The notes under the pieces were generated by a model. The model worked only from the letters and a program-made list of their open reading frames with translations, did no database searches and was not told the DNA's origin. Of a stretch of DNA of 64,000 nt, positions 4,271 through 32,437 are shown piece by piece. Source of the DNA: Hericium rajendrae (lineage: Eukaryota > Basidiomycota > Agaricomycetes > Russulales > Hericiaceae). The stretch's first letter is position 1. The number at the start of each line of letters is the position of its first letter. The DNA lies in assembly GCA_033439255.1 (NCBI GenBank), contig CM065885.1:558001-622000 (forward strand). Direction: 5' to 3'. The translations under genes and the position numbers were made by a program.

Positions 4271-4374
4271 AAACTTGATTTGGAGACTCAATGGGTTGAG
4301 TCCAACCTGAAGCAAAAGGGAGACAAGATAGTCCTACAATCTTAAATCGACTCTCCCTCGCGGTGGGCTCCAGA

Positions 4375-5400: not shown

Positions 5401-5564
5401 GAGCAGGTGCTGAGTCATTGCAGGCTTATTAATGCCTTGGTAAATGCCTTACTAAGTGGATAGAAGTTTCCGGATCATTTTCTGAATTTCCGGAGTCTTT
5501 CAGAGCTGGGCTGAATATTTTTCAGGAATGAGTGCATTTTCCCAATCATCAAATAGTCTATCCT

Positions 5565-6707: not shown

Positions 6708-6739
6708 CGTTGCCAGCAAACAAAGTCTCGTGTTCGCAT

Positions 6740-6931
6740 ACTACTCTAATATGGCTTTCGCTTAATGATCGAGCGTTGCCAGATCTTGAGCGTCTAGCTA
6801 CGTGCTTAACAGTAATCAATTCGAAGCCCTGAGTCTAGGCTCTCATCAATTTCTTGGTACTTGTTGATCGATCTTTCGATCTTTGCCAATCTCTGGGGCT
6901 GTTGAGTTTGCTAAATCAATCATGTCAATGC
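6740..6931. other. short non-coding spacer left of the copia fossil
   Basis: No coding signal is supported. The right edge is where recognisable copia integrase sequence begins abruptly at about 6932. No LTR or target duplication was found here, so the copia element lost its left end before or after insertion. Confidence 0.4.
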
Positions 6932-9900
6932 TCAAAACAGGTTTTGGGCGCGACAGCGTATCGGGACTGCGGCCTTGCGCGTGGAGCGTCGTGGCGCAGG
7001 TGCCGGTGGGTCGGTCGCCGGTAAGTCGGTAAGCACAGGTGAGTCTGAGTGAATGCTCGTGCTCTCGCCCCCTTGCTCGGGCTCAGCTGGCACGTCGGCT
7101 GGAGCGACGGTCGGAGTGGCGGCGGGAGTGGAAACCTCAACTTCGATCAGGGCACGATGCGGAGCAACGGTGCCTTCGTCGAATATGACGTCGCGGGACT
7201 CGAAAACGCGGCCAGTCGGTCGGTGAACGACGCGGTATGCCTTGCGATTTTGGGCGAGACCGATAAACGTGCATTCGAGCGATTTCGGGTCGAGCTTGCG
7301 ACGGTGCTTGTCAGGCACGTGCACATGAGCTTTGCAGCCGAAAACGTGAAGTTGCACAACTGAGGGCTTGTTGCCAGACCATGCTTCATGTGGGGTGATG
7401 TCGCTGGGCAGGGAACGGGTGGGTACGCGGTTGTGAATGTAAGCCGCGTACTCGATAGCGTCGAACCAGAAAGAGTTCGGTAGCTCAGTGTCAGCTAACA
7501 TCGCGCGTGCAGATTCAACGAGCGTGCGGTTGATGCGCTCGGCAATGCCGTTCTGTTGGGGCATATCCGCGTTGGACTTCTCGTGTTTGATGCCACGCTC
7601 ACGGAGGAAAGTCTGGAGCGCCGTAGACTCGTACTCTCCACCACCGTCGGATCACAAGATCCGCATCTGTTGACCCGATTCGAGCTCGGCGCGTGCGATG
7701 TAAGCCTGGAGGTGGGTGAAGACTTCAGCCTTGTGCCGCATCCCGTTGACCGAGGCATCACACGAGTGATCGTCGATCCAGGTAACGAAATATTGGTAAC
7801 CTTGACGGGACATGGTTTGCATCGGGCCGCAGACGTCCGAATGGACACGTCCGAGAATGATCTCTGCGCGCATCTGTGATTCCTTGGGAATGGCGGCGCG
7901 TGCCTGTTTCCCTTTGAGGCAGGGCGAACAGGTGCCGATGGAGTCGCGAGCGGTGTCGCCGATGATGGACATCCCTTCAACCATGCCGTGCTTCATCATA
8001 TGTCGGACGGCATCAACGCTGATATGTCCGAGTCAGCGGTGCCAAGTGCGAAGGTCTGCGGTGGAGACCTGCACTTTTGCGGGCATTGCGATTGGTTCGG
8101 AAGCGAGTGGATCGGTGTCGGAGTCACTGTCCGCGGAATCGGAGGACAGATCGGGGATGCGAGCAATGTGAGCCGTGGCCGGAGCATCGGTTACAGCGTC
8201 GATGACATAAAGGTTGTCGATGCGACGTGCGATTCCAACGAGTGTGTTGTCAGGGGCAGTGAGGCGGCAGAGCTCAGCTGAGAAGTTGACAGTGATGCCA
8301 CGTGTGTTGAGCTGGGCGACAGACAACAGGTTGCCATGGAGCTCCGGTACGTATAGCACGTCCCAGAGGATCACTGGGACTTCTTGCGAGCCGAGGCGCA
8401 TGCGGACTGCGATGCGGCCAATGCCGCGGGCAAGGATACAGGAGTCATCACCGAGCCAAACTTTCGTCGGTGGCGAAAGCTCCGCGTACTGGAAAAACCA
8501 GGAACGGTGCGAGGACATGGTGCGCGAGGCACCAGAGTCAAGCAGCCACTTGTGAATGAGAGTGGTGCGCTGAGGGTTCGGAGCGCGCGCCATGAAGATG
8601 CACACGACGGAGGGTGGTTCCTCAACGGAAGCGACTTTGGCGACGGCAGAAGTGGACTTGTCCTTCTCCGCCTGAGCGGCCTTGAGTTTTCGACAGTCAT
8701 CACGTACGTGACCTCGGTTATGACAATACTCGCATCTGATGACCTTCTTCTCACCTCCTTTACCCGCCCCCTTGCTGCCTGAACTATTTCCCCCCTTCCC
8801 ACTGAACTTCTTAGAAGCACGCGCCAATAGGGCGGTAGCAGTGAGTGATTCCTTGCGCCGTTGTTCCTCCTGCAAGACCTGAGTCTTGACCTTGTGCGGG
8901 GTTAGGTCGGAGATAGCGCCGGAAGTGAGGATGGTCTTCAGCGTGTCATAGGATGGCGGAAGGGCGAGCATGATGGCGACGGTGATGAGTTTCTCGTTGA
9001 GCAGGCAGGAGAGCGCCGTGAGACTCTGCGAAGCGCGCTGAAGCGCATTAATTTGCGGCTCCAGTGGTTCGTCGTCCGATAAATTTCCTCGGAAGAGTTG
9101 GCTGATGAGGAAAGCGATCTTCTGCTCGCCTTCGCCTTTGTAACGTGCGACTAAGCGATCCCACGCAGCTTTGGCAGTCGTAACGTCGGTGACGGTGATG
9201 TGTGGACCCTGGGAATGGAGGCGGCAGCCAAAACCAAAACCAACAGAGTACCGGGGGGGTGCGAGAGGACCAAGTATCTCAAGTGAGGAGTGAGGTGGGG
9301 GCAGCTGAGGGTCACTGCAGCAGGGACAATGGAGCGACCGGTTCGCTAAGGGCGAGTCTGAGGCGATCTGGTGATAAGCGGCTGGGAAGGATGAGGAACA
9401 GCTGTAGAATGACAAGGAGAACGACGAGACACACAGGTCTCCGATACGACGGACTAATCCTAGAGAAAAGGACTGAAAAGCGGCTGATATGACTGAATCT
9501 GACGAACGACGCTGTGGGCGGACTGGCCTAAAGAGGGCGGACTTGTCTAAAGTCCAGAGAACGATGAGAACAACAGTGAGAGAGACTTCTGAGGTCTGAG
9601 CTCTGAGGGGGAAAGGTGCACTGAGGGGTTCTATTCGAAGCTGGGACTCTCTCTACCATACAAGTAAGAAACTCGCCCTTGGCGGTCTCGGGCGATCTCG
9701 GACTCGGCTGCTCTATGGTACATCTATGGTCCGAAACCATCAAAAGGCGGCATCCAGGCATCCTGTACAACACAGACCCGGTCCCATAATGCCAGCAACC
9801 TGATTGGCTCACCAAAACCGCTGAGGACGATCTGGAGCGAACTTGAGGAAACCTCGGTGAAGCCTGTAGTAGCTGACAACTCCTGAGATGAGGGACATCA

Positions 9901-10591
9901 CCGCTCTGAGCGAGGTTGGTGGGTGAGGAGCTGAAAGCTGGATGGGAGTGAAGGGGAACTGCATGGAAGATGGTGAGATGAGGTCTGACGTTGCTGAACA
10001 CAGCTCGAGGTGTATCAACGGTGTTGAGCGGGTCAGACTCTAAGGTGAGTGTGATTTGCGCTCGTGCTTCGTCGTTGCCGAGGGCCCATTCGTCTCGGGC
10101 GTCCTGGCTTGCGTTAGCGGCCGGTTCGACCTTCGTGCCGTCAACATATGGCCAGAGTCCACGTATGCGGAGCACCATCTTCGAACGGTATTTCCATTCG
10201 GCCCAGTTCGAGTCGTCCTTCAGGAACTCGACGTCGTATAGGCGATTGGAGCCGCGGGCTTTGATGGAAGCCTGCGAAGCGGCGGGGGTCGATGCGGGTG
10301 ACTTGCCGGATGTCTTGCCGGAGTCGCTGCCGGTCATGGTGGGATGCTAATAATATTTGCACGGAGTTCTTTTGTTTGAAGTTATAACGACGCAGGGCCC
10401 ATAACCTGTTGCGCGTGATAGGTCTTCGAGATGGCTATAAGTAGACAATAAAAGGTGTATTGCTCAGCTCTCGAAGAAAGGAACTGTAGCTACGAAAAGG
10501 CAAACCTATAAGTAGACAATAAAAGGTGTATTGCTATTATAGTAGTTAGCTTTTGAGTCGAAAGGAAAATGGGAACAATATAACGAACCTC
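6932..10591 (-). mobile_element. Ty1/copia element 1, truncated and broken (fossil), with the first part of its 5' LTR
   Basis: Read on the minus strand, the parts are: part of the 5' LTR (10407-10591); a primer site GGTTATGGGCCC (10395-10406) matching the anticodon arm of initiator tRNA-Met, as known for copia; a Gag segment opening at 10335; Gag with a CCHC knuckle (CEYCHNRGHVRDDC, near 8700) and a protease motif (LLDSGASRTMSSH); integrase core segments (7652-7999); and the integrase C-terminal part (6932-7564, PQQNGIAERINRTL). Reverse transcriptase, RNase H and the 3' LTR are absent. The coding part is broken in several places. An extra segment of about 0.8 kb (9210-10010) separates two Gag-like parts. 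The remaining piece of the 5' LTR lies at 24032-24146, beyond the nested insertions. Confidence 0.8.
10407..10591 (-). repeat. copia element 1 LTR, first piece
   Basis: It starts TGTTGCGCG directly beside the primer site and is split by copia element 2. It continues at 24032 and ends CAACA at 24146, so its termini form the inverted pair TGTTG/CAACA. Inside are two copies of CTATAAGTAGACAATAAAAG (starting near 10435 and 10508) and an AGCTCTCGAAGAAAGGAACTG unit that recurs in the second piece. About 300 bp in total. Confidence 0.7.
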
Positions 10592-10623
10592 TCTTAGAAT
10601 ATGAGGATACGGGAGGGTTCTAT
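10592..10623 (-). repeat. copia element 2, 3' LTR, first 32 bp
   Basis: Begins TCTTAGAAT just after the ACCTC target copy and ends with TCTAT, the target site of the gypsy element. The rest of this LTR resumes at 17728. Confidence 0.85.
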
Positions 10624-11046
10624 TGTCACGGATCGCTCCACTTCTCTCCGCCTTCTTCTCTGCCATCAAGGCATCGCGTCGGTCATGTGCTCCAGCAGCC
10701 CCATCACATGTTCACTTCCTCACATGACCTGGGGCTATCCTTCACCCATGCCCTTGTTCCCCTTTGGGACATCCTATTGTTCTCCCTCCCATTGTTCTCC
10801 TTTTGGCCACCATTGTTCTCACTCTATTGTTCGACCCGTTATGGTGTCCATTGTTCTTTTCCCATTGTCGTCCCAGTACTTATAGGCTCCCTGTCGCTCG
10901 CCTACTTCCCTAGATTGTCCATTTCGTCTGTACCGTACTGTACCTCCAATACAGGTCACTGCGCTGCTAGTCGCTCTCTGCTCTCTCACTCCCATCATCG
11001 CTGGTGACTTGGGTGGTTCTCTGCTGTCTACGACCGAGTCTTGACA
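10624..11046 (+). repeat. 5' LTR of the nested gypsy element
   Basis: 423 bp, TGTCACGG to TTGACA. It contains runs of the CCCATTGTTCTCC type (about 10755-10870) and a weak TATA-like ACTTATAGG near 10878. A reading frame of 106 codons in it is identical in both LTRs and is not a gene. Confidence 0.95.
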
Positions 11047-12283
11047 CCTGGACAATCTCTCATACACCCGCCTCACCTCCCTACTATCGCCCATCATACC
11101 TTTCTTCTTTGAACCCTTCACCGCCGACATCTTCACCGAATCCCGACATCCATTCCATCAACCTCATCTCCCCTTTCCCATCGCCAACACCATCGAGGGC
11201 AGTGCACTCATCCCCCTCCTCCGCTATTGTGCTGTGAAGCGTTGGGAAGCCGAAGGAGTTTGGTTTCGATTGAGGTCGTGGAAACCACGTGCAGGTGCTA
11301 TCTCCATTGCCTTATACGTTCGAATTCGAGTTTCCTTTGACGTCGACTTGCAAGAATTCACGTTCGGTGCCTCGGATATTGCTTACCACTGTCGCCAACC
11401 CAACCGAGGATCCCCTGCAAGTATCCTACCATCGACCTCATTCCCCTTTTGCACACTAGGTCTTTTCACCCCGAACCCTCGCCTGAGCCTGTGTGGGCCA
11501 GAGAACGCCTCGGCCACCGATTCCTCAGAAACCCGTACTCGGACCCCCTGTACCCTCGTGCTCTTGGTCGTCGCCCAGTCGCGGCTGACTTCTTCTAGAC
11601 CTCACCATTGATCCCACCGACCCCCGTTTCCAGACCACAGAACCATACCCACTCGGCGTCTTTGCCTCGCTCGACGAATACTTCATCTACACCCTTTCTG
11701 GCATCGTTCGAATAGACTTCGTCACTCCGGACGAGGACGACGACGATCCCGCACAGTGGTACTTCGCTGATCGTGACGACCAGGCAGACCTCGAGCTTAA
11801 CGACTTCGACGTCGCAGCTACAGAACACCGCCGCCAACACCCCGCTACCCCGCCACTTCCCACCGTCGCCCTTCCTAGTGCAGATTCTCCCCTGCTCGCA
11901 CCACCCCACTTGTTGTTCCCCCAGGTATTACCTTCAACCCGGTAACCAACAACTACTACGCATACCGCTCCGACACCAATCGGCTTGTAGTCAGTTGGAG
12001 ACCCAGCCTCGTAGAAGAAAGTGACCTGTGGTTTTGGCAGGCCAGTACCCTCTTCTTAACCACTGCAGAACTCGCACTCTCTCAAGCAGTTATAGAGAAT
12101 CTCGCTCAGCAACAAGCTACCCGCCTCGATACCCTTCGGGCCCCACTACCACCACCTGTTTCGACACCTACCCCAGTACCAGTCCCCTCACCTGCTCCAC
12201 CCGTTGCCGCTGTTGCATCGACATCCACCGTCAACGTCAAACCAACCATTGCCACAGCTCCCCCTGTTCTGCCGCCCGACGAC
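11047..12283 (+). other. leader and upstream Gag region of the nested gypsy element
   Basis: The segment begins with the primer site and contains open stretches in more than one frame (for example 11234-11611 and 12028-12283). The last of these is in frame with Gag and rich in proline and alanine. Such long proline-rich leaders are usual in fungal chromoviruses. No separate gene is claimed. Confidence 0.5.
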
Positions 12284-13273
12284 ATGTCCAACCCCGAGAT
12301 CGGCGTCAAACCTGCTCCCTTTGAGGGAGATCGTTCCAAGTCCAAGGAATTCCAGCTGCGTATTCGCTTATTCCTTCGTGCCAACTCTGTCAGGTATAAA
12401 GAGGATACCGCCCAGATCTCCCTCTTCCTCGACCTCTGCCAGGGCCCTATTGCCGGCCAGTGGGCCACCCAGCGTGTCGAGGAGATCCTTGAGGATGACG
12501 ATCTTGTGGCTGCAGCCACATCTCCAGCCCATGTCCCCCGCTACGCCAACCTCGCTGCCCTTCGAACTCGCTTCAATTTGGACTTCTCCCCCCTTGACGA
12601 CTCCAAGGACGCCTCCCATGCCATCCAGACCCTCCAGATGGGCACGCGCCCAGTAGTCGACTACATCACCGAGTTCGAGTCCTTCGCTCCTCGCACCGGC
12701 TACAACGATGTGGCCCTGATCGATTGGTTCCTGCATGGCCTCAACAGCGCCTTGCGAGATGATTGCCAGCGCAGCTACCCCACGCCCACCACCCTGGTTG
12801 AGTGGAAGGCAAGGGCCCGGGACAGGAATGCTGCCTACCTCATGCGCACCCGGTTCCAGAGTCCCCGCCCTACAACTGGGCGCGCCCCGGTGAGCACTCG
12901 CTCCCCTCAGTCCACATCTACTGGCCGATCCCGCACAGTTGCTGCTACAGGTGCCCCACTGCCCAAACTCTCGGAGCCTGACCGTGAGCGTCTCAGGCGT
13001 GAGGGTGGTTGCTTCCGCTGCCGCCAGAAGGGCCATGGCTTCCGCGACTGCCCCCTCAATGCCGACTCCAACCCCCGTGCCCCAATCCCTCGTGTCCGAG
13101 CGCTAGAAACCGGCTCTGCCCCGGGAGTAGCTCCAGAAGATGCAGCCGCCGCCCTCGCTGTCCCCGCCATCAACAGGTCCATCGCCGACTTATCGTCGCA
13201 GTTGAAGGACTTGAGTGAGGAAGAAAGGGAAGAGGCAAAAGCTGCATTAAAGGATATGGTTGAGGGTTTTTAA
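12284..13273 (+). CDS. Gag of the nested gypsy element (fossil)
   Basis: 329 codons from the ATG at 12284, although the frame is also open upstream. The central part is a retrotransposon Gag fold (NPEIGVKPAPFEGDRSKSKE through VDYITEFESFAPRTGY). The C-terminal part carries a CCHC zinc knuckle (CFRCRQKGHGFRDC) near residues 244-257, which binds element RNA in this family. It ends 24 bp before the annotated start of the Pol frame, which is in a different frame. It acts in the cytoplasm as the particle protein. Confidence 0.85.
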   Translation: MSNPEIGVKPAPFEGDRSKSKEFQLRIRLFLRANSVRYKEDTAQISLFLDLCQGPIAGQWATQRVEEILEDDDLVAAATSPAHVPRYANLAALRTRFNLDFSPLDDSKDASHAIQTLQMGTRPVVDYITEFESFAPRTGYNDVALIDWFLHGLNSALRDDCQRSYPTPTTLVEWKARARDRNAAYLMRTRFQSPRPTTGRAPVSTRSPQSTSTGRSRTVAATGAPLPKLSEPDRERLRREGGCFRCRQKGHGFRDCPLNADSNPRAPIPRVRALETGSAPGVAPEDAAAALAVPAINRSIADLSSQLKDLSEEEREEAKAALKDMVEGF

Positions 13274-13296
13274 AGCGCCCCCCGGTCACGTCGTCC

Positions 13297-16200
13297 GTGG
13301 GTGGCAAGAAACATTTCTTTGATCCGTCGAATCGCTTCTCTGTACTATCCGACCCCTGTGAGCAATCGTATCCATCGTCTTTGCGCATGTCCGCTATCAC
13401 GCCCAACCGTCAGACACCGTCCATTACGCTCCAGGCCAAGATTATCACTGCCCCGATCAAGAAACAAATCGACGCTGAGGCACTTCTCGATAGTGGTGCA
13501 GAAGGCATCATTATGCACCCCGAGTTTGCCAAGAAACACCAGTTCCCCCTCAAGAAACTCCCTAAACCCTTTCCCGTTCGCAACGTGGACAACTCCGAAA
13601 ACATCATGGGCTGGGTCCGCTATTCAGTCAACCAGAACATCCGCATTTACGCCAAGGACTCGACGTCCTTTCATGAGGAGACAGCTGAGTTCTATCTCGT
13701 TGATATTGGTGACTACGACATTATCCTTGGGACCGATTGGTTACAGGAACACAACCCTGAAATTGATTGGGTCTCTCGTCGTGTCGACATGACTCGCTGC
13801 CCTCCCTCTTGCACTCTGAATAAACCCCCGGTCAAGAACCTGTCCACTCGCACTGAACGCCGTCACTCAGCCCCTCGTCCACCAGTCCTCAGCACTGCTG
13901 CAGTACTGCTCCCCCCACCTTGCCCCCCTCCATTGCTCCCACTGCCCCCACCATTTGTTGCTGCTCCCCTTCCCAAATACGTGATCCCCGCTCGCCGAGT
14001 CCAAGGTGTCCGCCTTCGCCGCATCCACCTGTCCAAAGTCCCTGCACGTCTATTCACTGAGGACGATGACCCCCGACCTAATGTCGATGACGACTGGGTT
14101 GAAGAGGGCCTTCGTCTAGCTGGTGTTCTCCCTGACTGGGACACACCACCCCCACCAGACGATGACCCCGACTATCAACACACCATCCGTATCCGTCGCT
14201 CTTTCACCAATGCTCAGAAACTGGCGGAGCGCGTGGCCACTCGTGTTGCAGAGAAGTCCTTTGCTGAGATGGTTCCCCCTCAGTATCAGGATTTCCAACC
14301 CGTCTTCGACGAGGAATCCTCCCATCGCCTCCCCGAACGTCGCCCTTGGGATCACGCCATTGACCTGAAAGATGGTTTTGAACCTCGTTCATGCAAAGTC
14401 TATCCCATGGCTCCTACCGAGCAGGAAGACCTTGATTCATTCCTTGATGACCAGGTCAAGAAAGGCTACATCCGTCCTTCCAAATCCCCTATGGCGAGTC
14501 CCTTCTTCTTTATCAAGAAAAAAGATGGAAAACTACGCCCCGTCCAGGACTATCGCACCCTCAACAAAGGCACCATCAAGAATGAATATCCCCTGCCCCT
14601 CATCTCTGAACTCGTTGACAAGCTCAAGGGTGCCAAAGTCTTCTCCAAGATGGACGTTCGTTGGGGTTACAACAACGTTCGCATCAAGGAGGGCGACGAA
14701 TGGAAAGCCGCCTTCAAAACCAACCGTGGTCTCTTTGAACCCCTGGTGATGTTTTTTGGTCTTACAAACTCCCCTGCCACGTTCCAAGGAATGATGAATG
14801 AACTTTTCAAGGATCTCATCGACACGGGCAAAGTCGTCATCTACATGGACGATATCCTCATTTTCACCGAAACCCTCGAAGAACATCGCGACCTTGTGCG
14901 CAAGGTCCTCCAACGCCTCCAGGACAATGACCTCTTCCTCAAACCAGAGAAGTGCTCGTTCGAGCAGCCCTCAGTTGAGTTCCTCGGTCTCATCGTCTCC
15001 CATAACACGCTCGCCATGGACCCCGTCAAGGTTGCAGGCATCGCTGAATGGCCTGCCCCCCGTAACGTCAAGGACGTCCAGTCCTTTGTTGGCTTTGGCA
15101 ACTTCTATCGACGCTTCATCCAGGACTTCTCCAAAGTCGCCCGTCCCATGTTTGACCTTACCAAGAAAGACCATCCTTGGGCCTGGTCTGCTGAATGTCA
15201 ACATGCCTTTGAGGCTCTTAAAGCTGCGTTCACCTCGTCCCCAGTCCTTATCATGCCTGACCCGTCCAAACCCTACTTGGTTGAGGTCGATGCCTCAGAC
15301 TATGCCACAGGAGGTATCCTATCCCAGCGCGGGGAGGACGAGCAATGGCACCCTGTTGCTTACATCTCCAAGGCCTTCACCGCCCCCGAACGCAACTACG
15401 ACATCTATGACAAGGAACTCCTGGCCATCATCCGCGCCCTCGAAGCCTGGCGCCACTACCTGGAAGGTTCTCCCCATACTGTGGAGATCTGGACCGACCA
15501 TAAGAACCTGGAATACTTCAAGTCTGCCCAAAAGCTGAGTCGTCGTCAGGCTCGCTGGGCTCTCTTCCTCACTCGTTTCGACTTCACCCTGATCCACAAA
15601 CCCGGTATTCATCACCGGCCAGATGCCATGTCGAGACGACCTGACCATAGAGAGGGGGTGGATGACGACAACTCCGATCGTGTCCTCCTCGACCCCAAGT
15701 ACTTCCAGATCCGTGCTACACGTCCAGCTGCTGTCAAGTCCATTGGCAATGCTGATCTTCGCCAACGCATTCGCAATGCCAAGACCAAGGACATTGAGGT
15801 TGTTCAAGCCCTTGATGTGATCCTGAACAATGGTCCTCGTTCCCTCGTCAAGAACCTCCAAGAATGGAACTACGAGGATGGCCTCATCCTCTTTCGTGGC
15901 AAAGTCTACATCCCTGCTGACAAGGACCTTCGTCGGGACATCGTCAAGCTGCATCATGACACCCCCATGGCTGGTCACCCAGGACGCTACAAGACCTATG
16001 AGCTCCTCAGTCGCAACTACTGGTGGCCCGGTATGTCTGTCTTCGTCCGTGATTATGTTGATGGCTGTGCTACCTGCCAGGCCACCAAGGTTCAAAATCA
16101 CCGCCCTCATGTTGAAACAATTCCCAATGCCATCCCTACCCGTCCCTTCCAAGACATTACCTCGGACTTCATCGTCAAACTCCCAGAATGCCAAGGCTGT

Positions 16201-17403
16201 GACTCCATCAATGTGGTCGTCGACCGTTTTACAAAGCATGTCTCCTTCACTCCTTGTAAAGAGACCATTACCAGTGATGGCACAGTCGACATCCTTTTTG
16301 ACAGGATTTATCGGAACTACGGCCTCTGGGAACGCCTCATCTCTGATCGTGGCCCACAGTATGCAGGCAAAGTCATGCGTGGCGTCTTCGACAAACTTGG
16401 TATCAAGTCCTCCCTCAGCACCGCCTATCATCCACAGACCGACGGCGAGTCAGAACGCGTCAATCAAGAACTCGAGCAGTTCCTTCGTACCTTCTGCAAC
16501 TACCGTCAGGATGATTGGGTCCAATGGCTCCCTTATGCTGAGTTCTCGCACAACCACCGTATCCACAGCGCCACTAACCGAGCTCCATTTGAAATGCTCC
16601 TCGGCTATATTCCCACTGCCATCCCCACTGTCAACCCCACATCGTCTACACCCGCCGTCGAGGATCGTTTCCGTCACCTCGAACAACTTCGCACTGAGGT
16701 CCAGGCCAGCCTTCAAACAGCTGCTGATCTCATGAAGCGCAACAACCAGGACCATATGCACGACACCATCCACTTCCAGGTTGGTGACAAGGTCTGGCTC
16801 GATGGCAAGAACATCAAAACCACGCGACCCAAAGCTAAGCTTGCTGATCGACGCCTGGGACCTTTCGAAATCACTGACGTCCTGGGCCCAGTCTCTTATC
16901 GACTGAAGCTACCGCCCACCTGGCGTATCCACCCGGTGTTCCACACATCCCTGTTGTCCCCTTACAAGGAAACCGACGCTCATGGTCCCAACTTCCCTGC
17001 ACCACCACCTGACCTTGTGGAGGGCGAGGAAGAGTACGAAGTTGAGTCTGTCCTCGATGCTCGTCTCACCCGGAACAAACGCGGCATTGAATACCTCGTC
17101 AAATGGGCAGGCTACCCTGATTCGGAAAATCAGTGGCTTTCACGTACCTCCCTTTCCAATGCCCATGGTGCAATCACCGACTTCTACACCCGCCATCCGC
17201 ATGCACTCAAGGCTCCCAATCTTCGTGGACTCATCTACCTCGACCCCGTCCATGCTCATCACGCACTCCAGGCGAAAGTGCGTCTTAGAGAGGGGGTGAT
17301 GTCACGGATCGCTCCACTTCTCTCCGCCTTCTTCTCTGCCATCAAGGCATCGCGTCGGTCATGTGCTCCAGCAGCCCCATCACATGTTCACTTCCTCACA
17401 TGA
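13297..17403 (+). CDS. Pol of the nested gypsy chromovirus (fossil, looks whole)
   Basis: 1,368 codons. In order: aspartic protease (LLDSGAEGIIMHPEF, D near residue 65); reverse transcriptase with YMDD at residues 516-519; RNase H (VEVDASDYATGGILS); an integrase zinc domain (HHDTPMAGHPG to CATCQ); integrase core (the second Asp in LISDRGPQYAG, the Glu in HPQTDGESERVNQEL); a GPF/Y module (RRLGPFEITDVLG); and a chromodomain (EVESVLDARLTRNKRGIEYLVKWAGY) from about residue 1247. Chromodomains in this clade steer integration toward marked chromatin (family knowledge). The frame continues about 100 bp into the 3' LTR, so the last 35 residues or so are LTR-encoded. The 13297 start is a GTG; translation is expected to enter from Gag. 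Confidence 0.92.
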   Translation: MGGKKHFFDPSNRFSVLSDPCEQSYPSSLRMSAITPNRQTPSITLQAKIITAPIKKQIDAEALLDSGAEGIIMHPEFAKKHQFPLKKLPKPFPVRNVDNSENIMGWVRYSVNQNIRIYAKDSTSFHEETAEFYLVDIGDYDIILGTDWLQEHNPEIDWVSRRVDMTRCPPSCTLNKPPVKNLSTRTERRHSAPRPPVLSTAAVLLPPPCPPPLLPLPPPFVAAPLPKYVIPARRVQGVRLRRIHLSKVPARLFTEDDDPRPNVDDDWVEEGLRLAGVLPDWDTPPPPDDDPDYQHTIRIRRSFTNAQKLAERVATRVAEKSFAEMVPPQYQDFQPVFDEESSHRLPERRPWDHAIDLKDGFEPRSCKVYPMAPTEQEDLDSFLDDQVKKGYIRPSKSPMASPFFFIKKKDGKLRPVQDYRTLNKGTIKNEYPLPLISELVDKLKGAKVFSKMDVRWGYNNVRIKEGDEWKAAFKTNRGLFEPLVMFFGLTNSPATFQGMMNELFKDLIDTGKVVIYMDDILIFTETLEEHRDLVRKVLQRLQDNDLFLKPEKCSFEQPSVEFLGLIVSHNTLAMDPVKVAGIAEWPAPRNVKDVQSFVGFGNFYRRFIQDFSKVARPMFDLTKKDHPWAWSAECQHAFEALKAAFTSSPVLIMPDPSKPYLVEVDASDYATGGILSQRGEDEQWHPVAYISKAFTAPERNYDIYDKELLAIIRALEAWRHYLEGSPHTVEIWTDHKNLEYFKSAQKLSRRQARWALFLTRFDFTLIHKPGIHHRPDAMSRRPDHREGVDDDNSDRVLLDPKYFQIRATRPAAVKSIGNADLRQRIRNAKTKDIEVVQALDVILNNGPRSLVKNLQEWNYEDGLILFRGKVYIPADKDLRRDIVKLHHDTPMAGHPGRYKTYELLSRNYWWPGMSVFVRDYVDGCATCQATKVQNHRPHVETIPNAIPTRPFQDITSDFIVKLPECQGCDSINVVVDRFTKHVSFTPCKETITSDGTVDILFDRIYRNYGLWERLISDRGPQYAGKVMRGVFDKLGIKSSLSTAYHPQTDGESERVNQELEQFLRTFCNYRQDDWVQWLPYAEFSHNHRIHSATNRAPFEMLLGYIPTAIPTVNPTSSTPAVEDRFRHLEQLRTEVQASLQTAADLMKRNNQDHMHDTIHFQVGDKVWLDGKNIKTTRPKAKLADRRLGPFEITDVLGPVSYRLKLPPTWRIHPVFHTSLLSPYKETDAHGPNFPAPPPDLVEGEEEYEVESVLDARLTRNKRGIEYLVKWAGYPDSENQWLSRTSLSNAHGAITDFYTRHPHALKAPNLRGLIYLDPVHAHHALQAKVRLREGVMSRIAPLLSAFFSAIKASRRSCAPAAPSHVHFLT

Positions 17404-17722
17404 CCTGGGGCTATCCTTCACCCATGCCCTTGTTCCCCTTTGGGACATCCTATTGTTCTCCCTCCCATTGTTCTCCTTTTGGCCACCATTGTTCTCACTC
17501 TATTGTTCGACCCGTTATGGTGTCCATTGTTCTTTTCCCATTGTCGTCCCAGTACTTATAGGCTCCCTGTCGCTCGCCTACTTCCCTAGATTGTCCATTT
17601 CGTCTGTACCGTACTGTACCTCCAATACAGGTCACTGCGCTGCTAGTCGCTCTCTGCTCTCTCACTCCCATCATCGCTGGTGACTTGGGTGGTTCTCTGC
17701 TGTCTACGACCGAGTCTTGACA
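17300..17722 (+). repeat. 3' LTR of the nested gypsy element
   Basis: 423 bp, with no difference seen from the 5' LTR. It follows the purine tract and is followed by the target copy TCTAT at 17723-17727. Confidence 0.95.
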
Positions 17723-18074
17723 TCTATGACAATACCGAGCAGTTAGACTCAGTGATAGGAGAATTCACTTCTATTGATTATGTACCTATGACAATACCGA
17801 GCAGTTAGACTGCCCGCGGAGTAAGTACATTGCCAATCAATTAAAGAAGAGTATTGTCGCGTACCTCAGTGATAGGAGAATTCACTGAGGTACACATCGC
17901 GTAAACTCGTGCCTACATTAACGGCGCGAGTGGCTGATGATAACTGTACAGTAGCGTACGTAATCGAACTGGGCTCCAGGCCCGAACATCTAATCTATAG
18001 ACAAAGAAACAGATAAGATGAGATTCGCACTTAGCGTGCTTTTGGTCGAACGGGCGTTTGCCCCGATCTCAATA
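17723..18074 (-). repeat. copia element 2, 3' LTR, remaining part
   Basis: Bases 17723-17727 are the target copy and 17728-18074 complete the 379 bp LTR, ending CTCAATA. There are internal direct repeats: CTATGACAATACCGAGCAGT at 17724 and 17786, and CAGTGATAGGAGAATTCACT near 17750 and 17870. One difference from the right-hand LTR was seen. Confidence 0.9.
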
Positions 18075-18081
18075 GACCCCT

Positions 18082-20883
18082 TCAAACCTCGTGCGGCCCA
18101 ATCCCAACTAACCCTCGCATCTTTTCCACCTTCGGGCGTGCCAGCGCCTTCGTGAATATATCCGCGGCCATTTCGGCAGTCGGGCAGTAGACAAGATCGA
18201 CTTGGTCTCGCTCCACGACGTCGCGTATGAAGTGATACCGGATCGAGATGTGTTTCATACGAGAATGGAATATATTGTCTTGCGCGAGCGTGATCGCCGA
18301 TTGATTGTCGCAGAAGAGCGTTGTCGGCTTGTCGAATTGGCCGATGATCTCGCCGAGGATCGCGCGGATCCACAAGACTTCCTTGGCGGCATGCGTCATG
18401 GCGATGTATTCGGCTTCGGTGCTCGAGAGTGCGACAACCGACTGCTTCTTGGATGACCAAGAGACGGCGCCGCCATCAACGAGAAAGACAAATCCCGAAA
18501 TTGAGTGCCTGTGATCGTTAGATCCCCAATCTGCATCGGAATACCCAACTATACCACCCTCTGAATCTTCGCCGTAAGTCAGCCACTCGTCCCTCGTGGT
18601 CTTCAGGTACCGTATGACGCGCTTCGCGGCTTCCCAATGCGCGCGTCCCGGGTTGTGCATAAACTGGGACAGTGTCGTTACTGCGTACGCCTTGTCGGGC
18701 CGTGTGCCGAGCGCCGCATACATCAACGAGCCGACCGCCTCGCGGTAAGGCACATTTTGCATGTCTTCGTATTGGCGCGGGGCCGACGGGGACTGGGCGT
18801 CGGATAAGGCGAATGACGGATCGAGCGGCGTCGATAGCGGTCTTGCGTCGTCGAGATTGAAACGCGAAACGATCGTGTCGATGTACGCACTTTGTGACAT
18901 GGACAGGGTACGGGCCCCCCGGTCGCGTCGAATCTCGATGCCAAGGAGCCAGTGGAGCTCCCCGAGATCGGTCATATCGAAGCGCGATTTGAGTCCGTCC
19001 TTGACGTGGGTCATGACGTCGACCGAATTTGTGGCGATAGCGAGATCGTCAACCGAAACTGCGACGATCGCGATGTCGCCGTTCTCGCCGTGCCTGAAGA
19101 AGACCGAATGATCGACCGAGGATCGCGTGAAGCCCATGTCCAAAAATGCGGCACAGAGCTTCTTGTACCAGCGGCGCCCCGCCTGCTTTAGCCCGTAAAT
19201 GGGTTTGAATAAATGACATACTTTATTCTCCTGCCCGGGGGCAGGAAAACCTGGGGGCTGCTTCATGTAGATTTCCTCTTCGAGATCACCGTTCAGGTAC
19301 GCGTTCTTCACGTCCATTTGATGGAGCTCGTAATTGAAACGGGCGGCGAGAGCGCTGACGAGACGGACTGACGCGAGCTTAGCAACGGGGGCAAAAGTAT
19401 CTGTAAAGTCAATGCCCGGGATCTGAGAGAAGCCCTGAGCGACCAATCGTGCCTTGTATTTGCTGATCGCACCGGCGGCATCTCGTTTGATCTTGAATAC
19501 CCATTTGCTGCCGACGACGTTGGCGCCGGCCGGCTTCTCGGTAAGTTCCCACGTTCCCATCTTCTCGAGCCTCTCCAACTCATCCTTTATTGCTGCCTCC
19601 CACTCCGGCCAGTCCTCCCTCGCCTTTGCCGCGTTCACCGTGTGCGGCTCGTCGCCGGTCGCCGGCGTCGCGGCCAATCCCCACTCAACACCGTCTGCGG
19701 ATAGACGGAGGAGGAATTCCTCTTCGTCGTCCGAGTCGCGTTCTCCGCCGCTTGCGATCGCGTCGCTGAACGCGGCCTCACCCTTGTCCTCGCCCTCGCT
19801 CTCGCTTCCTGGGGCCGTGAAGTCCGGCGCGGCTTGCACGACGCGCATACCGCGCGGCAACGGAGGTGCACGCGGAAGTCCGGTAGTCGAACCGGCACCG
19901 GCTTGGAGTAGGCGGACGTAGCGGGAAGGCGCTATGGTGCGCCGCGCGCGAGGTGCGTCTGGTGCCATGGGTGGCGCGCTGCGTGTGCGCGGCGGGGTCT
20001 GCGGGGCGTGAGTCGGCGCAGTCGTGGTCGGCGGCTCGCTCTGGCGGGTTGCGGGCGCGGTCTGCGCGTTTGGCGCGGTCTTCGCGTCCTTCGGCGCGTC
20101 GGTCTTCGTGTCTTGCACGGCGGGCACGGTCGGTGGTGCGGCCACGGGGATAGTGCGATCCGGCGCGGGGGTATCCCTCAGCGCGGCGTCGTCCCCGTCT
20201 ATGGCGACCCATTCGTCCGGAGCCTGTCCGTCGAAAAGGTCGACGAGCCAGTCCTCGGCCGGCTCGTCGGTCATGGGCGGCAGCGCTGCGTCGTCCCAGA
20301 CGACGTTCCGCTCGACGGAAATCGAGCGCTTGCGCGGCCAATAGACCAGTATCCCCTTGCTTTCGCTACTGAATCCGACGAAACGGCCTTCGTCCGCTCG
20401 CGCGTCGAGCTTGCGCCGGTTCTCCATGCGCACCCACACGGGGCATCCCCATTCATGTAGGTCCGATAAGTCCGGCTTCTCGCCGAAGACGCGTTCGTAC
20501 GGGGTATGATCGCCCGTGACTTTCCCCCCGGTGCGGTTCCACAACCACACGGCATGTTGCATCGCGGCCGCCCAAAGGAATTTCGGCAGGCCGGAGGCCA
20601 ACAGCATGGCGAGGGCGCGTGTGACGCTGGTGCGGAAGAACCGCTCGGCAGCGCCATTCTGCGAAGACGAGTCGTGCACCGTTTTTTCGTGGTGCGTGCC
20701 CTTCGATTCGAGGTGTCCTTCGAACTCGGCACTTGTATATTCGCCGCCGCGGTCTGAGCGGAAGTTCTTGATGACAGTAACTCCCCCGGTGGACTTCGAC
20801 AAATTTCTCGTAGGCCACATATTTGGCGAACGCCTCGCTTTTGCGCCGGAGAAAGGAGATGAGGACCTCATAGGTCGCATCAT
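18082..20883 (-). CDS. copia element 2 Pol: integrase part, reverse transcriptase, RNase H (fossil)
   Basis: 933 codons. The N-terminal part is an integrase core (FRSDRGGEYTSAEFE, then SSSQNGAAERFFRT). A long proline/alanine/threonine-rich linker follows, then a copia-type reverse transcriptase (WVFKIKRDAAGAISKYKARL, DVKNAYLNGDLEEEIYMKQP, with VSVDDLAIA as the catalytic segment), and a Ty1/copia RNase H (GYSDADWGSNDHRHSISGF, STEAEYIAMTHAAKEVLWIR). The frame ends just before the purine tract. It is a catalytic polyprotein part of a fossil element; upstream pieces of the same polyprotein are annotated separately. Confidence 0.85.
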   Translation of the reverse strand: MMRPMRSSSPFSGAKARRSPNMWPTRNLSKSTGGVTVIKNFRSDRGGEYTSAEFEGHLESKGTHHEKTVHDSSSQNGAAERFFRTSVTRALAMLLASGLPKFLWAAAMQHAVWLWNRTGGKVTGDHTPYERVFGEKPDLSDLHEWGCPVWVRMENRRKLDARADEGRFVGFSSESKGILVYWPRKRSISVERNVVWDDAALPPMTDEPAEDWLVDLFDGQAPDEWVAIDGDDAALRDTPAPDRTIPVAAPPTVPAVQDTKTDAPKDAKTAPNAQTAPATRQSEPPTTTAPTHAPQTPPRTRSAPPMAPDAPRARRTIAPSRYVRLLQAGAGSTTGLPRAPPLPRGMRVVQAAPDFTAPGSESEGEDKGEAAFSDAIASGGERDSDDEEEFLLRLSADGVEWGLAATPATGDEPHTVNAAKAREDWPEWEAAIKDELERLEKMGTWELTEKPAGANVVGSKWVFKIKRDAAGAISKYKARLVAQGFSQIPGIDFTDTFAPVAKLASVRLVSALAARFNYELHQMDVKNAYLNGDLEEEIYMKQPPGFPAPGQENKVCHLFKPIYGLKQAGRRWYKKLCAAFLDMGFTRSSVDHSVFFRHGENGDIAIVAVSVDDLAIATNSVDVMTHVKDGLKSRFDMTDLGELHWLLGIEIRRDRGARTLSMSQSAYIDTIVSRFNLDDARPLSTPLDPSFALSDAQSPSAPRQYEDMQNVPYREAVGSLMYAALGTRPDKAYAVTTLSQFMHNPGRAHWEAAKRVIRYLKTTRDEWLTYGEDSEGGIVGYSDADWGSNDHRHSISGFVFLVDGGAVSWSSKKQSVVALSSTEAEYIAMTHAAKEVLWIRAILGEIIGQFDKPTTLFCDNQSAITLAQDNIFHSRMKHISIRYHFIRDVVERDQVDLVYCPTAEMAADIFTKALARPKVEKMRGLVGIGPHEV

Positions 20884-21142
20884 CCATTAACGTCATCGCG
20901 TACCGATGTCCCGCAAGCGACTCTATGTGCGCGGGGCCAAAAAGGTCCGATGAGACTAGTTCCCCATAGGTCGTCGATCGGGGACGCGATCGTTCCTTCG
21001 GGAATGGCACGCGGCGAATCTTCGCTTGTACGCAGGCTCGGCACAGCTCCATCTCCTGGAGGAGCGAATCGAGATCTATGCCGACGATCGCGCCGCGTTT
21101 GATAAGCGCTTTGGCCGCGTCGATTGACATGTGGCCCAGCCT
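20884..21142 (-). other. copia element 2, integrase N-terminal zinc region (fossil)
   Basis: Between the two large open segments the minus strand encodes recognisable integrase N-terminal sequence in an open stretch that overlaps the neighbouring segment (20453-21130, for example LCRACVQAKIRRVPFPKERS). It is part of the same element, which is broken in a few places. Confidence 0.6.
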
Positions 21143-22264
21143 TCAATGTAAGTCGGCCGCTGACAGCGTGAGAAGAGCGCTGTGTTCTTTATTGACAGCG
21201 ACGCTGGCGGCAAGCGCATCGGCAGGGCTGACGAATTTGTATAGGTTGTCAGCGCGGGGGATATGCGCGATAATCCGTCCGGCGGGGCTACGTATCTGAC
21301 AATGTCCGTCGCGGAACGTTGTCGAAAAGCCGGATGCGTCGATTCGGCTAATAGAAATCAACGTGAATGCTATACTTGGCGTATACAGTACATCCTTCAG
21401 GGTAATCCTGGTGACTGTGCTGCCATTCGGGAATGGAACTATGATGTCTCCTTGTCCCGTCGCGAAGAAGACGCGCTTGTCAGCGGCGACGATCGGTTTC
21501 GGCGTGATCTGATGGAAGTTGAGGAATTCCGATCGGAAGGGCGAATAATGATGGCTGGCGCCGGTGTCAATACATCGCGTCAGGTCCGATTCGGGGGTCG
21601 CGGCGGCTAGCGCTGAGAAGGCGAAATGGGTCTCGAGGGCGGCAGCGATGTTAGCTGCTCCCTTGTCCCCGGCGTCCTTATCCTTCCCGCTGCTCTTGCC
21701 TTTCCTGTCCGGTCCTTGCCCCTCCTTTCCTCCACCTTTCTGCCAGCAGTTCGCAGCGTCGTGGAATCTGCGCCCGCAGTTCGTACACTTGACGCCGTCG
21801 GGCTTCTTGCCGTTGCCGTTGCCGTTGCCGTGCGCGCCTCGGCTAGTCCCGCGCTTCTTTGGATCGAATGATGCGAGAAGCGCGGTATCGGCCTTCTCAA
21901 GCCGCGCCTTGATCGCACGGCGATCGAATTCCTCGTTGACATGAGAAATAATGGTCAGCGGCGGGATGGTCTTTCCGGTGATGCGAGCGGCCGAGAGCAT
22001 TGCTGATAGGACGGGGTCGTAGTCGGCGGGAAGGGAGGATAGAATTATTGCAGCGAAGTTGGTGTCATCTAATTTAGCTCCCATGCCTGCTAGCTCCTCC
22101 TTCATACGAAGCAAGGCGTCGAAGTGCTCGCGAACGTCGCCGCCAGCGTGGCAGCGCGTTTCCTGGAGTCTTCGCCGGAGATCGATTTTGACCATTTCGG
22201 TCTTGCCCTCGTACTCGTTACATACGGCGGACCATACTTCGTGCGCGCGATCGAGATCCTGCAC
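21143..22264 (-). CDS. copia element 2 Gag C-terminal half and protease (fossil)
   Basis: 373 codons. Gag-like helices (DVREHFDALLRMKEELAGMG) are followed by a zinc knuckle (CTNCGRRFHDAANC), a lysine/glycine-rich linker, and a protease with DTGASHHYSPF and the downstream conserved DVLYTPSIAFTLISI. The segment is cut off upstream by the TRIM insertion. Confidence 0.8.
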   Translation of the reverse strand: MQDLDRAHEVWSAVCNEYEGKTEMVKIDLRRRLQETRCHAGGDVREHFDALLRMKEELAGMGAKLDDTNFAAIILSSLPADYDPVLSAMLSAARITGKTIPPLTIISHVNEEFDRRAIKARLEKADTALLASFDPKKRGTSRGAHGNGNGNGKKPDGVKCTNCGRRFHDAANCWQKGGGKEGQGPDRKGKSSGKDKDAGDKGAANIAAALETHFAFSALAAATPESDLTRCIDTGASHHYSPFRSEFLNFHQITPKPIVAADKRVFFATGQGDIIVPFPNGSTVTRITLKDVLYTPSIAFTLISISRIDASGFSTTFRDGHCQIRSPAGRIIAHIPRADNLYKFVSPADALAASVAVNKEHSALLTLSAADLH

Positions 22265-22337
22265 GCGCAGAAGGAGTGATTCGGAGATCGTCGAGAAGAT
22301 CTGTTGTTTGACTGTGTACTCTTTTTGGAGCCACTGG

Positions 22338-22719
22338 TGTCATGAATCGCCCATTGGTCTTCTTCATTCCCTTTGTTCCCTATATGGACACTCCCTTGTT
22401 ATATCCCCTTGTTCCCTGTTAGGATATCCCTTGTTCCCCTTTAGGATATCCCTTGTTCCCCTTTGGGACATCCCTTGTTCCCCTTCCCCTTGTTCCCCTT
22501 TCAGGATATCCCTTGTTCTCCTTTGGGCTATCCTTCCAGTATATATAGGGCTACCTTTCTGACTGGTTTCCTCAGTTTGTCCACTTGACTCTCCAGTCCC
22601 ATTGTACCCTAGACATTCTCAGCCTGTCTCTACTCTCTATGACATCCTCTGCTCTTTGATCCTTGATCCCTTGGGGTGACTTGGATGGCTTCACTGTTCC
22701 CCTGAACCCAGTCTTGACA
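22338..22719 (+). repeat. left LTR of the TRIM
   Basis: 382 bp. It has a clear TATATATA box at 22540-22547. Upstream, from about 22400 to 22530, are five or so degenerate copies of a 20-22 bp unit built on ATCCCTTGTTCCCCTTT. Confidence 0.9.
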
Positions 22720-23002
22720 TTTGGACAAACTCTCATACATCCACCTCACCCACCCCTGTCCATTGGATTCTTACCCTCCCACCTAGTCCTTGAACCCACC
22801 GCCCACTGCCCAGCCATGACCCCATGATCACCAGATGAGTTGACACCATTGCTTGCAAAAAACCCACAGAACCACAGACCACAGAACACAGAACACAGAC
22901 CCACTTGCAAGGTGGTTGTTAGTCTCAGACTCAAGATTCCATGTAGATGTTGGATAGGTGTTGGTGTGCTCCAGGTGCAAGCACACCTTAAAGAGGGGGT
23001 AA

Positions 23003-23384
23003 TGTCATGAATCACCCATTGGTCTTCTTCATTCCCTTTGTTCCCTATATGGACACTCCCTTGTTATGTCCCCTTGTTCCCTGTTAGGATATCCCTTGTT
23101 CCCCTTTAGGATATCCCTTGTTCCCCTTTGGGACATCCCTTGTTCCCCTTCCCCTTGTTCCCCTTTCAGGATATCCCTTGTTCCCCTTTGGGCTATCCTT
23201 CCAGTATATATAGGGCTACCTTTCTGACTGGCTTCCTCAGTTTGTCCACTTGACTCTCCAGTCCCATTGTACCCTAGACATTCTCAGCCTGTCTCTACTC
23301 TCTATGACATCCTCTGCTCTTTGATCCTTGATCCCTTGGGGTGACTTGGATGGCTTCACTGTTCCCCTGAACCCAGTCTTGACA
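23003..23384 (+). repeat. right LTR of the TRIM
   Basis: 382 bp, the same repeat units and TATA box as the left copy, with four transition differences. It is followed by the target copy ACTGG. Confidence 0.9.
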
Positions 23385-23389
23385 ACTGG

Positions 23390-23622
23390 TCCCACTTGTC
23401 TTCGTAATCATCCAGTTGCTCGGTCGTCGGATCGACCTCCTTTTGGTCTTTATCAATAGACGTCAGTGGTTCCTTCGGTTCCTTGGCGGTGCCTCTCAAA
23501 TGGCGCATCAAGCCTTTCGCTCCGATCACGGTCACGATTCGGGTTTTGTACGTTACCCAATTCGAGCCATTTGCGGTGAGCTTCGGGACGGTGTAGAGGT
23601 TGAACGAATTATTGAGCGACAT
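23390..23622 (-). CDS. copia element 2 Gag N-terminal part (fossil)
   Basis: A minus-strand segment with MSLNNSFNLYTVPKLTANGS and NWVTYKTRIVTVIGAKGL, the typical start of copia/gag-polypeptide proteins of fungi. A more upstream ATG at 23643 overlaps the primer site and is less likely to be used. The segment is interrupted by the TRIM insertion at 23389. Confidence 0.7.
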
Positions 23623-23647
23623 TGAATCGGCACCAGGGCCCATAACC

Positions 23648-24026
23648 TCTTAGAATATGAGGATACGGGAGGGTTCTATGACAATACCGAGCAGTTAGAC
23701 TCAGTGATAGGAGAATTCACTTCTATTGATTATGTACCTATGACAATACCGAGCAGTTAGACTGCCCGCGGAGTAAGTACATTGCCAATCAATTAAAGAA
23801 GAGTATTGTCGCGTACCTCAGTGATAGGAGAATTCACTGAGGTACACATCGCGTAAACTCGCGCCTACATTAACGGCGCGAGTGGCTGATGATAACTGTA
23901 CAGTAGCGTACGTAATCGAACTGGGCTCCAGGCCCGAACATCTAATCTATAGACAAAGAAACAGATAAGATGAGATTCGCACTTAGCGTGCTTTTGGTCG
24001 AACGGGCGTTTGCCCCGATCTCAATA
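23648..24026 (-). repeat. copia element 2, 5' LTR (carries the empty site of the gypsy insertion)
   Basis: 379 bp, from TCTTAGAAT beside the primer site to CTCAATA, followed by the target copy ACCTC (24027-24031). It has uninterrupted GGGTTCTATGACAATACC at 23672-23689, which is the exact pre-insertion form of the site occupied by the gypsy element at 10619-10623/17728. The LTR ends are not the usual TG...CA. Confidence 0.9.
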
Positions 24027-24031
24027 ACCTC

Positions 24032-24146
24032 AGCTCTCGAAGAAAGGAACTGAGGGAAAAAGCTGTCGGTATCGTAGCGTGTATGGTACGAGTCCGATCA
24101 GCCACAGAGACTAGAAACTGTACAGTATATTGTCCGTGGACCAACA
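24032..24146 (-). repeat. copia element 1, 5' LTR, remaining piece
   Basis: It starts AGCTCTCGAAGAAAGGAACTG, continuing the sequence cut at 10591, and ends GGACCAACA. The end mirrors the TGTTG at 10407, which supports this as the outer edge of the first copia element. Confidence 0.65.
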
Positions 24147-32348: not shown

Positions 32349-32437
32349 TCGGTTATGGTGTAACGGCTAACATTATCGCCTCTCATGGATTCAGGATTTG
32401 TTCGCGATAGCTCGGGGTTCGACTCCCCGTAACCGAA
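32349..32437 (+). tRNA. tRNA-Glu(CTC) with a 17-nt intron
   Basis: The acceptor arms TCGGTTA/TAACCGA pair perfectly. The D arm is GTGT/ACAT with loop AACGGCTA, the anticodon stem ATCGC/GCGAT, and the T arm CGGGG-TTCGACT-CCCCG, with discriminator A at 32437. The anticodon CTC is at 32382-32384. An intron at 32386-32402 follows position 37, the canonical place. After removal the body is 72 nt. The overall sequence resembles eukaryotic tRNA-Glu, including the GGCTA D-loop. An identical body is at 55841. Confidence 0.9.

What the first reader, a model, noticed from the sequence alone, without database searches (positions are those of the whole stretch)
6932..24146. Four LTR elements nested in a readable order
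Copia element 1 is split in its LTR by copia element 2 (target copy ACCTC, 10587 and 24027). Element 2 is split in its 3' LTR by a chromodomain gypsy element (target copy TCTAT, 10619 and 17723) and in its Gag by a TRIM (target copy ACTGG, 22333 and 23385). All three inserted elements have exact 5 bp duplications and LTR pairs of equal length (379, 423 and 382 bp), so the history can be read without an outgroup.
Basis: seen in the sequence. Interest (0 to 1): 0.7.

Follow-up and report, generated by a model that had tools for sequence, protein, structure and literature searches.

The report
Six nested retroelements; gene inside LTR
A nest of four jumping genes turns out to hold six, and one that was missed, a 16-kilobase element, carries a conserved gene inside its terminal repeats, which normally hold only control signals.

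Summary
The nesting is real. All three target duplications are exact, and the LTR pairs are 379, 423 and 382 bp as stated. The host genome is held and shows a larger nest: C8:546474-582252, 35.8 kb, six elements.

Copia element 1's other LTR begins 11.5 kb left of the window. It is identical (0/407 columns) and holds one ACCTC: a built-in empty site for element 2. Element 1 is also split by a solo LTR (9198-10017) and by a 16,391-bp gypsy whose right LTR is window 4375-6955. The order is only partly readable. The LTR clock is marginally at odds with it: the TRIM has 4/382 LTR differences, more than the older elements around it (P=0.042).

The unexpected part: the giant gypsy's 2,581-bp LTRs contain a 267-codon gene (5904-6707, minus) with dN/dS about 0.33. 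It lies beside 13 of 13 closely related pol matches and 1 of 37 more distant ones, upstream of a TATA-like site, so probably in U3. I propose a U3-encoded accessory protein, arranged like MMTV Sag but unrelated. Its function is inferred. My paper searches showed no described counterpart in a retrotransposon.

The parts
1..6955 (-). Right part of a giant gypsy element (whole: C8:548565-564955, 16,391 bp) inserted in copia element 1
   Evidence: 2,581-bp direct repeat at both ends, TGTCG...CGACA, 4-bp repeat GCGT at the edges, RT-RNase H-integrase between
4375..6955 (-). 5' LTR of the giant gypsy, 2,581 bp; 3' LTR is C8:551145-548565
   Evidence: 4 differences in 2,581; further LTR pair on C2
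5904..6707 (-). Conserved 267-codon gene inside the LTR (LTR sense positions 249-1052)
   Evidence: dN/dS about 0.33 against relatives; 56 tblastn matches; beside 13 of 13 related pol matches
2..4315 (-). ORF1 of the giant gypsy (gag-protease), open for 1,438 codons in the window and 503 more outside
   Evidence: aspartyl protease match, weak DUF4100, open frame
6956..10591 (-). Copia element 1, right-hand interior and first part of its 5' LTR (10407-10591)
   Evidence: copia domains; matches C1 and C5 copies
9198..10017 (.). Solo LTR (820 bp) of another LTR family, inserted in element 1 gag
   Evidence: absent from C1 and C5 copies; 40 matches in the genome (40 of 182 candidates scored), nine same-strand pairs 4.28-4.39 kb apart; ACGGTG on both sides
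10587..10591 (.). Target copy ACCTC of element 2, left (right copy 24027-24031)
10592..24026 (-). Copia element 2 with its two inserts; own length 5,279 bp; LTRs 10592-10623 plus 17728-18074, and 23648-24026
10624..17722 (+). Chromodomain gypsy, 7,099 bp, in element 2's 3' LTR; target copy TCTAT 10619 and 17723
   Evidence: LTRs 0/423; domains
22338..23384 (+). TRIM, 1,047 bp, in element 2's gag; target copy ACTGG 22333 and 23385
   Evidence: LTRs 4/382; LTR ends, PBS and PPT regions shared with the gypsy
24027..24252 (-). Rest of element 1's 5' LTR, ending ...CAACA, followed by target copy ATCTC at 24253-24257 (other copy C8:546469-546473)

Best explanation
The locus is a six-element nest built by ordinary integrase-mediated insertion. 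Copia element 1 landed first. It was later hit by copia element 2, by a giant gypsy and by an LTR element that collapsed to a solo LTR. Element 2 was then hit by a chromodomain gypsy and a TRIM. Shown: the insertions, the target copies and the partial order. The giant gypsy belongs to a clade whose LTRs carry a protein-coding gene under purifying selection (shown for one comparison of subfamilies). The gene lies upstream of the presumed core promoter, hence in U3 (inferred). I propose that it is an accessory protein made from its own transcript that helps the element by acting on its transcription, silencing or RNA handling (inferred, weak). Reverse transcription copies U3 into both LTRs, so the gene is present twice per element and can survive in solo LTRs.
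For: Nest: exact target copies and LTR pairs; empty site in element 1's own second LTR; lengths add up, 5,118 bp for element 1 against 5,122 for its C1 copy. LTR gene: dN 0.39-0.42, dS 1.19-1.26 against three relatives of one subfamily, second codon positions most conserved, homology from the start codon to the last codons; 23 of 30 near-full-length copies lack an in-frame stop, while a neutral simulation at 33% divergence gave 6.9 stops on average and never 0 in 2,000; 0 of 2,000 shuffled LTRs had so long an ORF; beside 13 of 13 pol matches at 77% identity or more, 10 on both sides, against 1 of 37 at 72% or less. U3: TATA-like site at LTR 1865 inside a block conserved in gene-less relatives, AATAAA at 2391; the gene-less LTRs are about 1.0 kb shorter just where the gene lies.
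Against: No transcript or protein data. The TATA and AATAAA motifs are short and could be chance; no chance rate was computed. The three relatives used for dN/dS belong to one subfamily, so they amount to about one independent comparison; among themselves the ratio is 0.16, 0.43 and 0.62, the two higher with the frame-broken L086. The two LTRs of one element are not independent in the stop counts. 7 of 30 near-full-length copies have a stop, and 26 of 56 matches are partial. 28 of 56 matches lie near no scored pol. No family or PDB match hints at a function. The giant's edge repeat is 4 bp, not the usual 5, and no clean polypurine tract is seen before its 3' LTR.
Confidence: 0.7

Rival explanations
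1. The LTR ORF is not a U3 gene. Transcription starts within the first 248 bp of the LTR, so the ORF is the first reading frame (or a spliced first exon) of the genomic RNA and contributes a leader or extra gag-like protein.
For: The ORF is in sense orientation and near the LTR start. ORF1 follows shortly after the 5' LTR (ORF 2-4315, LTR from 4375).
Against: About 1.5 kb lies between the ORF and the LTR end; the TATA-like site and the blocks shared with gene-less LTRs lie downstream of the ORF.
Confidence: 0.25
2. The LTR ORF is a host gene or fragment picked up by the LTR and carried as a passenger.
For: It is absent from related LTRs as a block of about 1 kb, and three matches at 35-37% identity on C5, C3 and C2 lie near no scored pol and might be host genes.
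Against: Frames stay open and dN is well below dS between subfamilies whose pol is about 80% identical; a passenger would decay.
Confidence: 0.12
3. The TRIM's four LTR differences are ordinary mutations since insertion and the conflict with the nesting order is chance.
For: The conflict is marginal (P=0.042); age intervals overlap; recurrent sites weighted, shared alleles have P=0.14.
Against: Three of four differing sites carry alleles seen in other copies, and L023 shares two non-CpG variants of the 5' LTR (P=0.015 with equal mutability). The L012 TRIM has LTRs of two length classes within an exact target copy, which fits conversion or mixed templates, though its 22-bp difference is one unit of a tandem repeat.
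Confidence: 0.5
4. The nest, or part of it, is an assembly artefact.
For: All parts are repeats, with near-identical copies elsewhere for the chromodomain gypsy, TRIM and giant families.
Against: Exact target copies at the three stated junctions and around element 1, a 4-bp one at the giant, 5-6 bp at the solo LTR; lengths add up to within 4 bp of another copy.
Confidence: 0.03

Closest known systems
MMTV (betaretrovirus), U3 region with the Sag/Naf ORF (PMC9412291, passages read)
   Same: Protein-coding ORF within the LTR; in MMTV it is served by its own U3 promoter
   Different: Here a fungal-type gypsy element without a detected env; no Pfam, NCBIfam or PDB match for the protein; U3 position inferred only. 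It works like it at most in layout, not by descent
LTR retrotransposons with additional ORFs, e.g. bdelloid rotifer elements (PMC5408684, passages read)
   Same: Extra gene besides gag and pol
   Different: In those passages the extra ORFs are internal (e.g. downstream of pol) and LTRs are 159-551 bp; here the ORF is inside a 2,581-bp LTR
Nested plant LTR retrotransposons (PMC6911290, passages read)
   Same: Insertion of LTR elements into LTR elements, with nesting as relative age
   Different: That study reports LTRs as uncommon targets; here two of five insertions hit an LTR (element 2 and the chromodomain gypsy)
TRIMs, e.g. taeniid ta-TRIM (PMC4558846, passages read)
   Same: Short element with LTRs and priming signals and no coding frame, presumably moved in trans
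   Different: Here a probable helper, the chromodomain gypsy in the same nest, shares LTR ends, PBS and PPT regions, and the TRIM has 2 CpG in 1,047 bp, observed/expected 0.04

Membership tests
Ty3/gypsy (giant element) | RT, RNase H and integrase in that order in one pol, with RT before integrase | tested here: met
   RVT_1 184-295, RNase H 427-556, H2C2 698-751, rve 770-859 in one frame; rve and RVT_1 are weak
Ty3/gypsy (giant element) | LTRs with TG...CA ends and a target copy | tested here: met
   TGTCG...CGACA, GCGT on both sides (4 bp)
Ty3/gypsy (giant element) | Polypurine tract next to the 3' LTR | tested here: inconclusive
   No clean purine run in the 50 bases before the 3' LTR
Chromovirus (chromodomain gypsy 10624-17722) | Chromodomain at the end of a gypsy integrase | tested here: met
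   PF00385 at 1247-1298, E 1.3e-10
Chromovirus (giant gypsy) | Chromodomain at the end of integrase | tested here: not met
   No Chromo match in the frames scanned; so it is not filed as one
Ty1/copia (elements 1 and 2) | Copia gag, BBD, integrase before RVT_2 | tested here: met
   Met for element 2: gag, BBD, SH3 and RVT_2 in that order. For element 1 gag, BBD and SH3 only; its RT part lies outside the window and was not scanned
TRIM (22338-23384) | Short LTR element with PBS and PPT, no coding capacity | tested here: met
   1,047 bp, PBS and PPT regions alignable with the gypsy; the 150-codon ORF list shows no gene of its own, one frame 22059-22562 overlapping its left edge
TRIM (22338-23384) | Moved in trans by another element | not testable with these tools
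   Inferred from shared signals with the gypsy
MMTV-like U3 gene | ORF located in U3 with its own transcript | not testable with these tools
   No RNA data; placing inferred from TATA and AATAAA motifs
MMTV Sag | Sequence homology to Sag | tested here: not met
   No Pfam match up to E 1 for the window protein, up to E 5 for two relatives

The most novel reading that the evidence does not exclude
A clade of giant, probably fungal gypsy elements has evolved, independently of retroviruses, an LTR-encoded accessory gene. It sits in U3, is kept by selection through several subfamilies, and makes solo LTRs left behind stand-alone copies of that gene in the host genome: a way for a retroelement to seed regulators of itself, or raw material for host genes.
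Probability: 0.5. Interest if true: 0.75.

Novelty: new variant of a known kind. Interest (0 to 1): 0.58.

Why it matters
Nested LTR elements are common, and as such the finding is ordinary. An LTR that carries a selected gene is unusual: the case I found in print is MMTV. If confirmed, it would be a separate origin of an LTR-encoded gene, would help explain 2.6-kb LTRs, and would let one ask what an LTR gene does for a retroelement not known to infect. The nest also gives a built-in test of LTR dating, because positional order and LTR divergence can be compared in one place.

Tried and rejected
Rejected: that the long direct repeat left of element 1 is a host segmental duplication (gypsy pol between the copies, TG...CA ends, a 4-bp target copy, another LTR pair on C2). 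Rejected: that the LTR ORF is a chance frame. Considered: that the TRIM is an old copy; impossible by position, so its LTR divergence must be chance, conversion or non-identity at birth. Considered: CpG deamination as cause of the TRIM's differences; its LTRs have 1 and 0 CpG, so only one of four sites fits. Considered: that the TRIM is simply the gypsy with CpG turned into TpG/CpA; of 18 gypsy CpGs in the LTR alignment 3 align to TG/CA/TA, 1 is kept and 14 align otherwise; in the PBS region 2 of 4 and in the PPT region 6 of 7 do. So this is not shown for the LTR.

Led nowhere: PDB sequence search (4 matches, best E 0.79) and profile search (0) with the LTR protein, NCBIfam, viral contigs. Paper searches: among the titles, abstract openings and passages I saw, none describes a gene inside the LTR of a fungal or other retrotransposon, apart from MMTV. 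Several lists were cut (20 of 66, 12 of 13, 12 of 100). Passages, not whole texts, were seen of PMC5408684, PMC5689174, PMC6911290, PMC4558846, PMC9674265, PMC10817607, PMC12037069, PMC11117352 and PMC9412291. The host species was not identified; 'fungal' is my inference from element types and the 46.8-Mb genome.
Full report
1. The observation. ACCTC, TCTAT and ACTGG are exact at the stated places; the three inserted elements have LTR pairs of 379, 423 and 382 bp. Domains fit two copia elements on the minus strand and a chromodomain gypsy on the plus strand.

2. The nest is larger. The window is C8:558001-622000 of a 46.77-Mb genome in 19 contigs. Searching it with the flanks of element 2 found element 1's second LTR at C8:546473-546879. 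It matches the split LTR in 407 of 407 columns and holds a single ACCTC, so the pre-insertion state is read inside the same element. The LTR proper is TGTTG...CAACA, 406 bp, with ATCTC on both outer sides. Element 1 therefore runs from C8:546474 to window 24252.

3. Two insertions were missed. (a) A 2,581-bp direct repeat (C8:548565-551145 and window 4375-6955, 4 differences) with TGTCG...CGACA ends brackets gypsy RT, RNase H and integrase on the minus strand: a 16,391-bp gypsy inside element 1 with GCGT (4 bp) at both edges. (b) Window 9198-10017 is absent from the C1 and C5 copies of element 1. It matches 40 places including itself (40 of 182 candidates scored), nine of them same-strand pairs 4.28-4.39 kb apart, i.e. 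it is a solo LTR. ACGGTG flanks it; target copies of 5 and 6 bp cannot be told apart. With insert lengths subtracted, element 1 measures 5,118 bp against 5,122 for its C1 copy, and element 2 measures 5,279 bp.

4. The order. Element 1 is first. Element 2, the giant gypsy and the solo LTR came later in unknown order; the chromodomain gypsy and the TRIM came after element 2 in unknown order. LTR differences are 0/406, 1/379, 4/2581, 0/423 and 4/382 for element 1, element 2, giant gypsy, chromodomain gypsy and TRIM. With the fungal rate 1.05e-9 quoted in PMC5689174 (passage) these give 0, 1.26, 0.74, 0 and 4.99 My with wide, overlapping intervals. The TRIM cannot be older than element 2, so the clock reading is out of order; a conditional test on element 1, element 2 and TRIM gives P=0.042. 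The window gypsy's LTRs differ from all 28 other LTRs compared at two sites and from 21 at a third, equally in both LTRs, so these changes predate the insertion.

5. Why the TRIM's LTRs differ. Among 33 other TRIM LTRs, alleles at 3 of the 4 differing sites recur; the fourth variant is private. The solo LTR L023 shares two non-CpG variants of the 5' LTR. The chance of that is 0.015 with equal mutability, but 0.14 if recurrent sites are weighted. The L012 TRIM has LTRs of 382 and 360 bp inside an exact target copy; the 22-bp difference is one unit of a tandem repeat. This hints at conversion or mixed templates and is no proof. 6 of 6 full TRIMs and 23 of 23 solo LTRs checked have exact 5-bp target copies (L024, a rearranged copy, left out; 40 of 352 candidates were scored). 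The TRIM shares LTR ends, PBS and PPT regions with the chromodomain gypsy, its probable helper.

6. The gene in the LTR. Window 5904-6707 (minus) is a 267-codon frame, sense, at LTR positions 249-1052. A DNA search with the LTR found distant families matching at the ends, in blocks at 1655-2048, and across 339-926 inside the frame. Codon comparison with three relatives of one subfamily gives dN 0.39-0.42 and dS 1.19-1.26; among those relatives the ratio is 0.16, 0.43 and 0.62, the two higher ones with a frame-broken copy (L086). tblastn finds 56 matches at 34-100% identity; of 30 near-full-length ones (243 or more of 271 residues) 23 have no in-frame stop and 7 have one. 28 of 56 gene matches lie near no scored pol. 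Two gene-less relatives' LTRs (C7:575589-577449, C3:895988-897839) share ends and downstream blocks but are about 1.0 kb shorter where the gene lies (by coordinates; letters not fetched).

7. Mechanism. A TATA-like site at LTR 1865, in a conserved block, and AATAAA at 2391 suggest a start near 1890 and so place the gene in U3 (both motifs are short). By established reverse-transcription biology (recalled), U3 is copied from the 3' end of the RNA into both LTRs, so each element carries the gene twice and a solo LTR keeps one. In MMTV the U3 ORF (Sag, Naf) is served by its own U3 promoter (PMC9412291, passages). I propose a like arrangement here. What the protein does is unknown; an acidic run and basic clusters are visible, and a regulatory role on the element's own expression is my best guess.

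8. The rest of the giant element. ORF1 is an open frame of about 1,942 codons (one base at the window edge unread here; one search reports an open frame of 1,948) with an aspartyl protease and a weak DUF4100 match. About 2 kb without a long frame follows, then pol, which in this copy lies in two frames while some other copies have longer single frames.

9. Limits. The species is unknown.

Noticed in passing
22338-23384; L009-L038: The TRIM family has almost no CpG (2 in 1,047 bp, observed/expected 0.04, against 1.05 for the window) and far more solo LTRs than full copies among those fetched (23 against 6). A CpG-free element might escape methylation.
   Followed up: partly
C5:355402-356115, C3:145443-146210, C2:4449604-4450149 (coordinates only): Open-frame matches at 35-37% identity to the LTR protein that lie near no scored giant pol; possible host genes or an older LTR lineage.
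   Followed up: no
10592-24026: Element 2 is the only copy of its family in the genome by its LTR (next best 83% identical) although its own LTRs differ at one site; possibly a recent arrival. Its LTR ends are TATTG...TAAGA rather than TG...CA.
   Followed up: partly
8018-9200: Element 1 is 87.9% identical to its C1 copy here but 93-97% in the other stretches compared; a mosaic or a divergent stretch.
   Followed up: no
L029 and L030 (C9:2045414 and C9:1955163): Two solo TRIM LTRs 90 kb apart share the target copy TACAT and several variants; probably a duplicated segment.
   Followed up: no
42750-43122 and 44380-44750: A direct repeat pair of about 373 bp, 81.5% identical, 1.6 kb apart; perhaps an old short LTR element.
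   Followed up: no
32340-32439 and 55829-55923: Two 87% identical copies of a tRNA-like sequence; ARAGORN calls tRNA-Arg (tct) at 55841-55921 and an uncertain tRNA at 32348-32438.
   Followed up: no
10370-10406 and 23630-23647: Both copia elements have GGTTATGGGCCC (sense) next to the 5' LTR, which looks like the anticodon arm of initiator tRNA-Met, i.e. half-tRNA priming (recalled; not tested against a tRNA).
   Followed up: no
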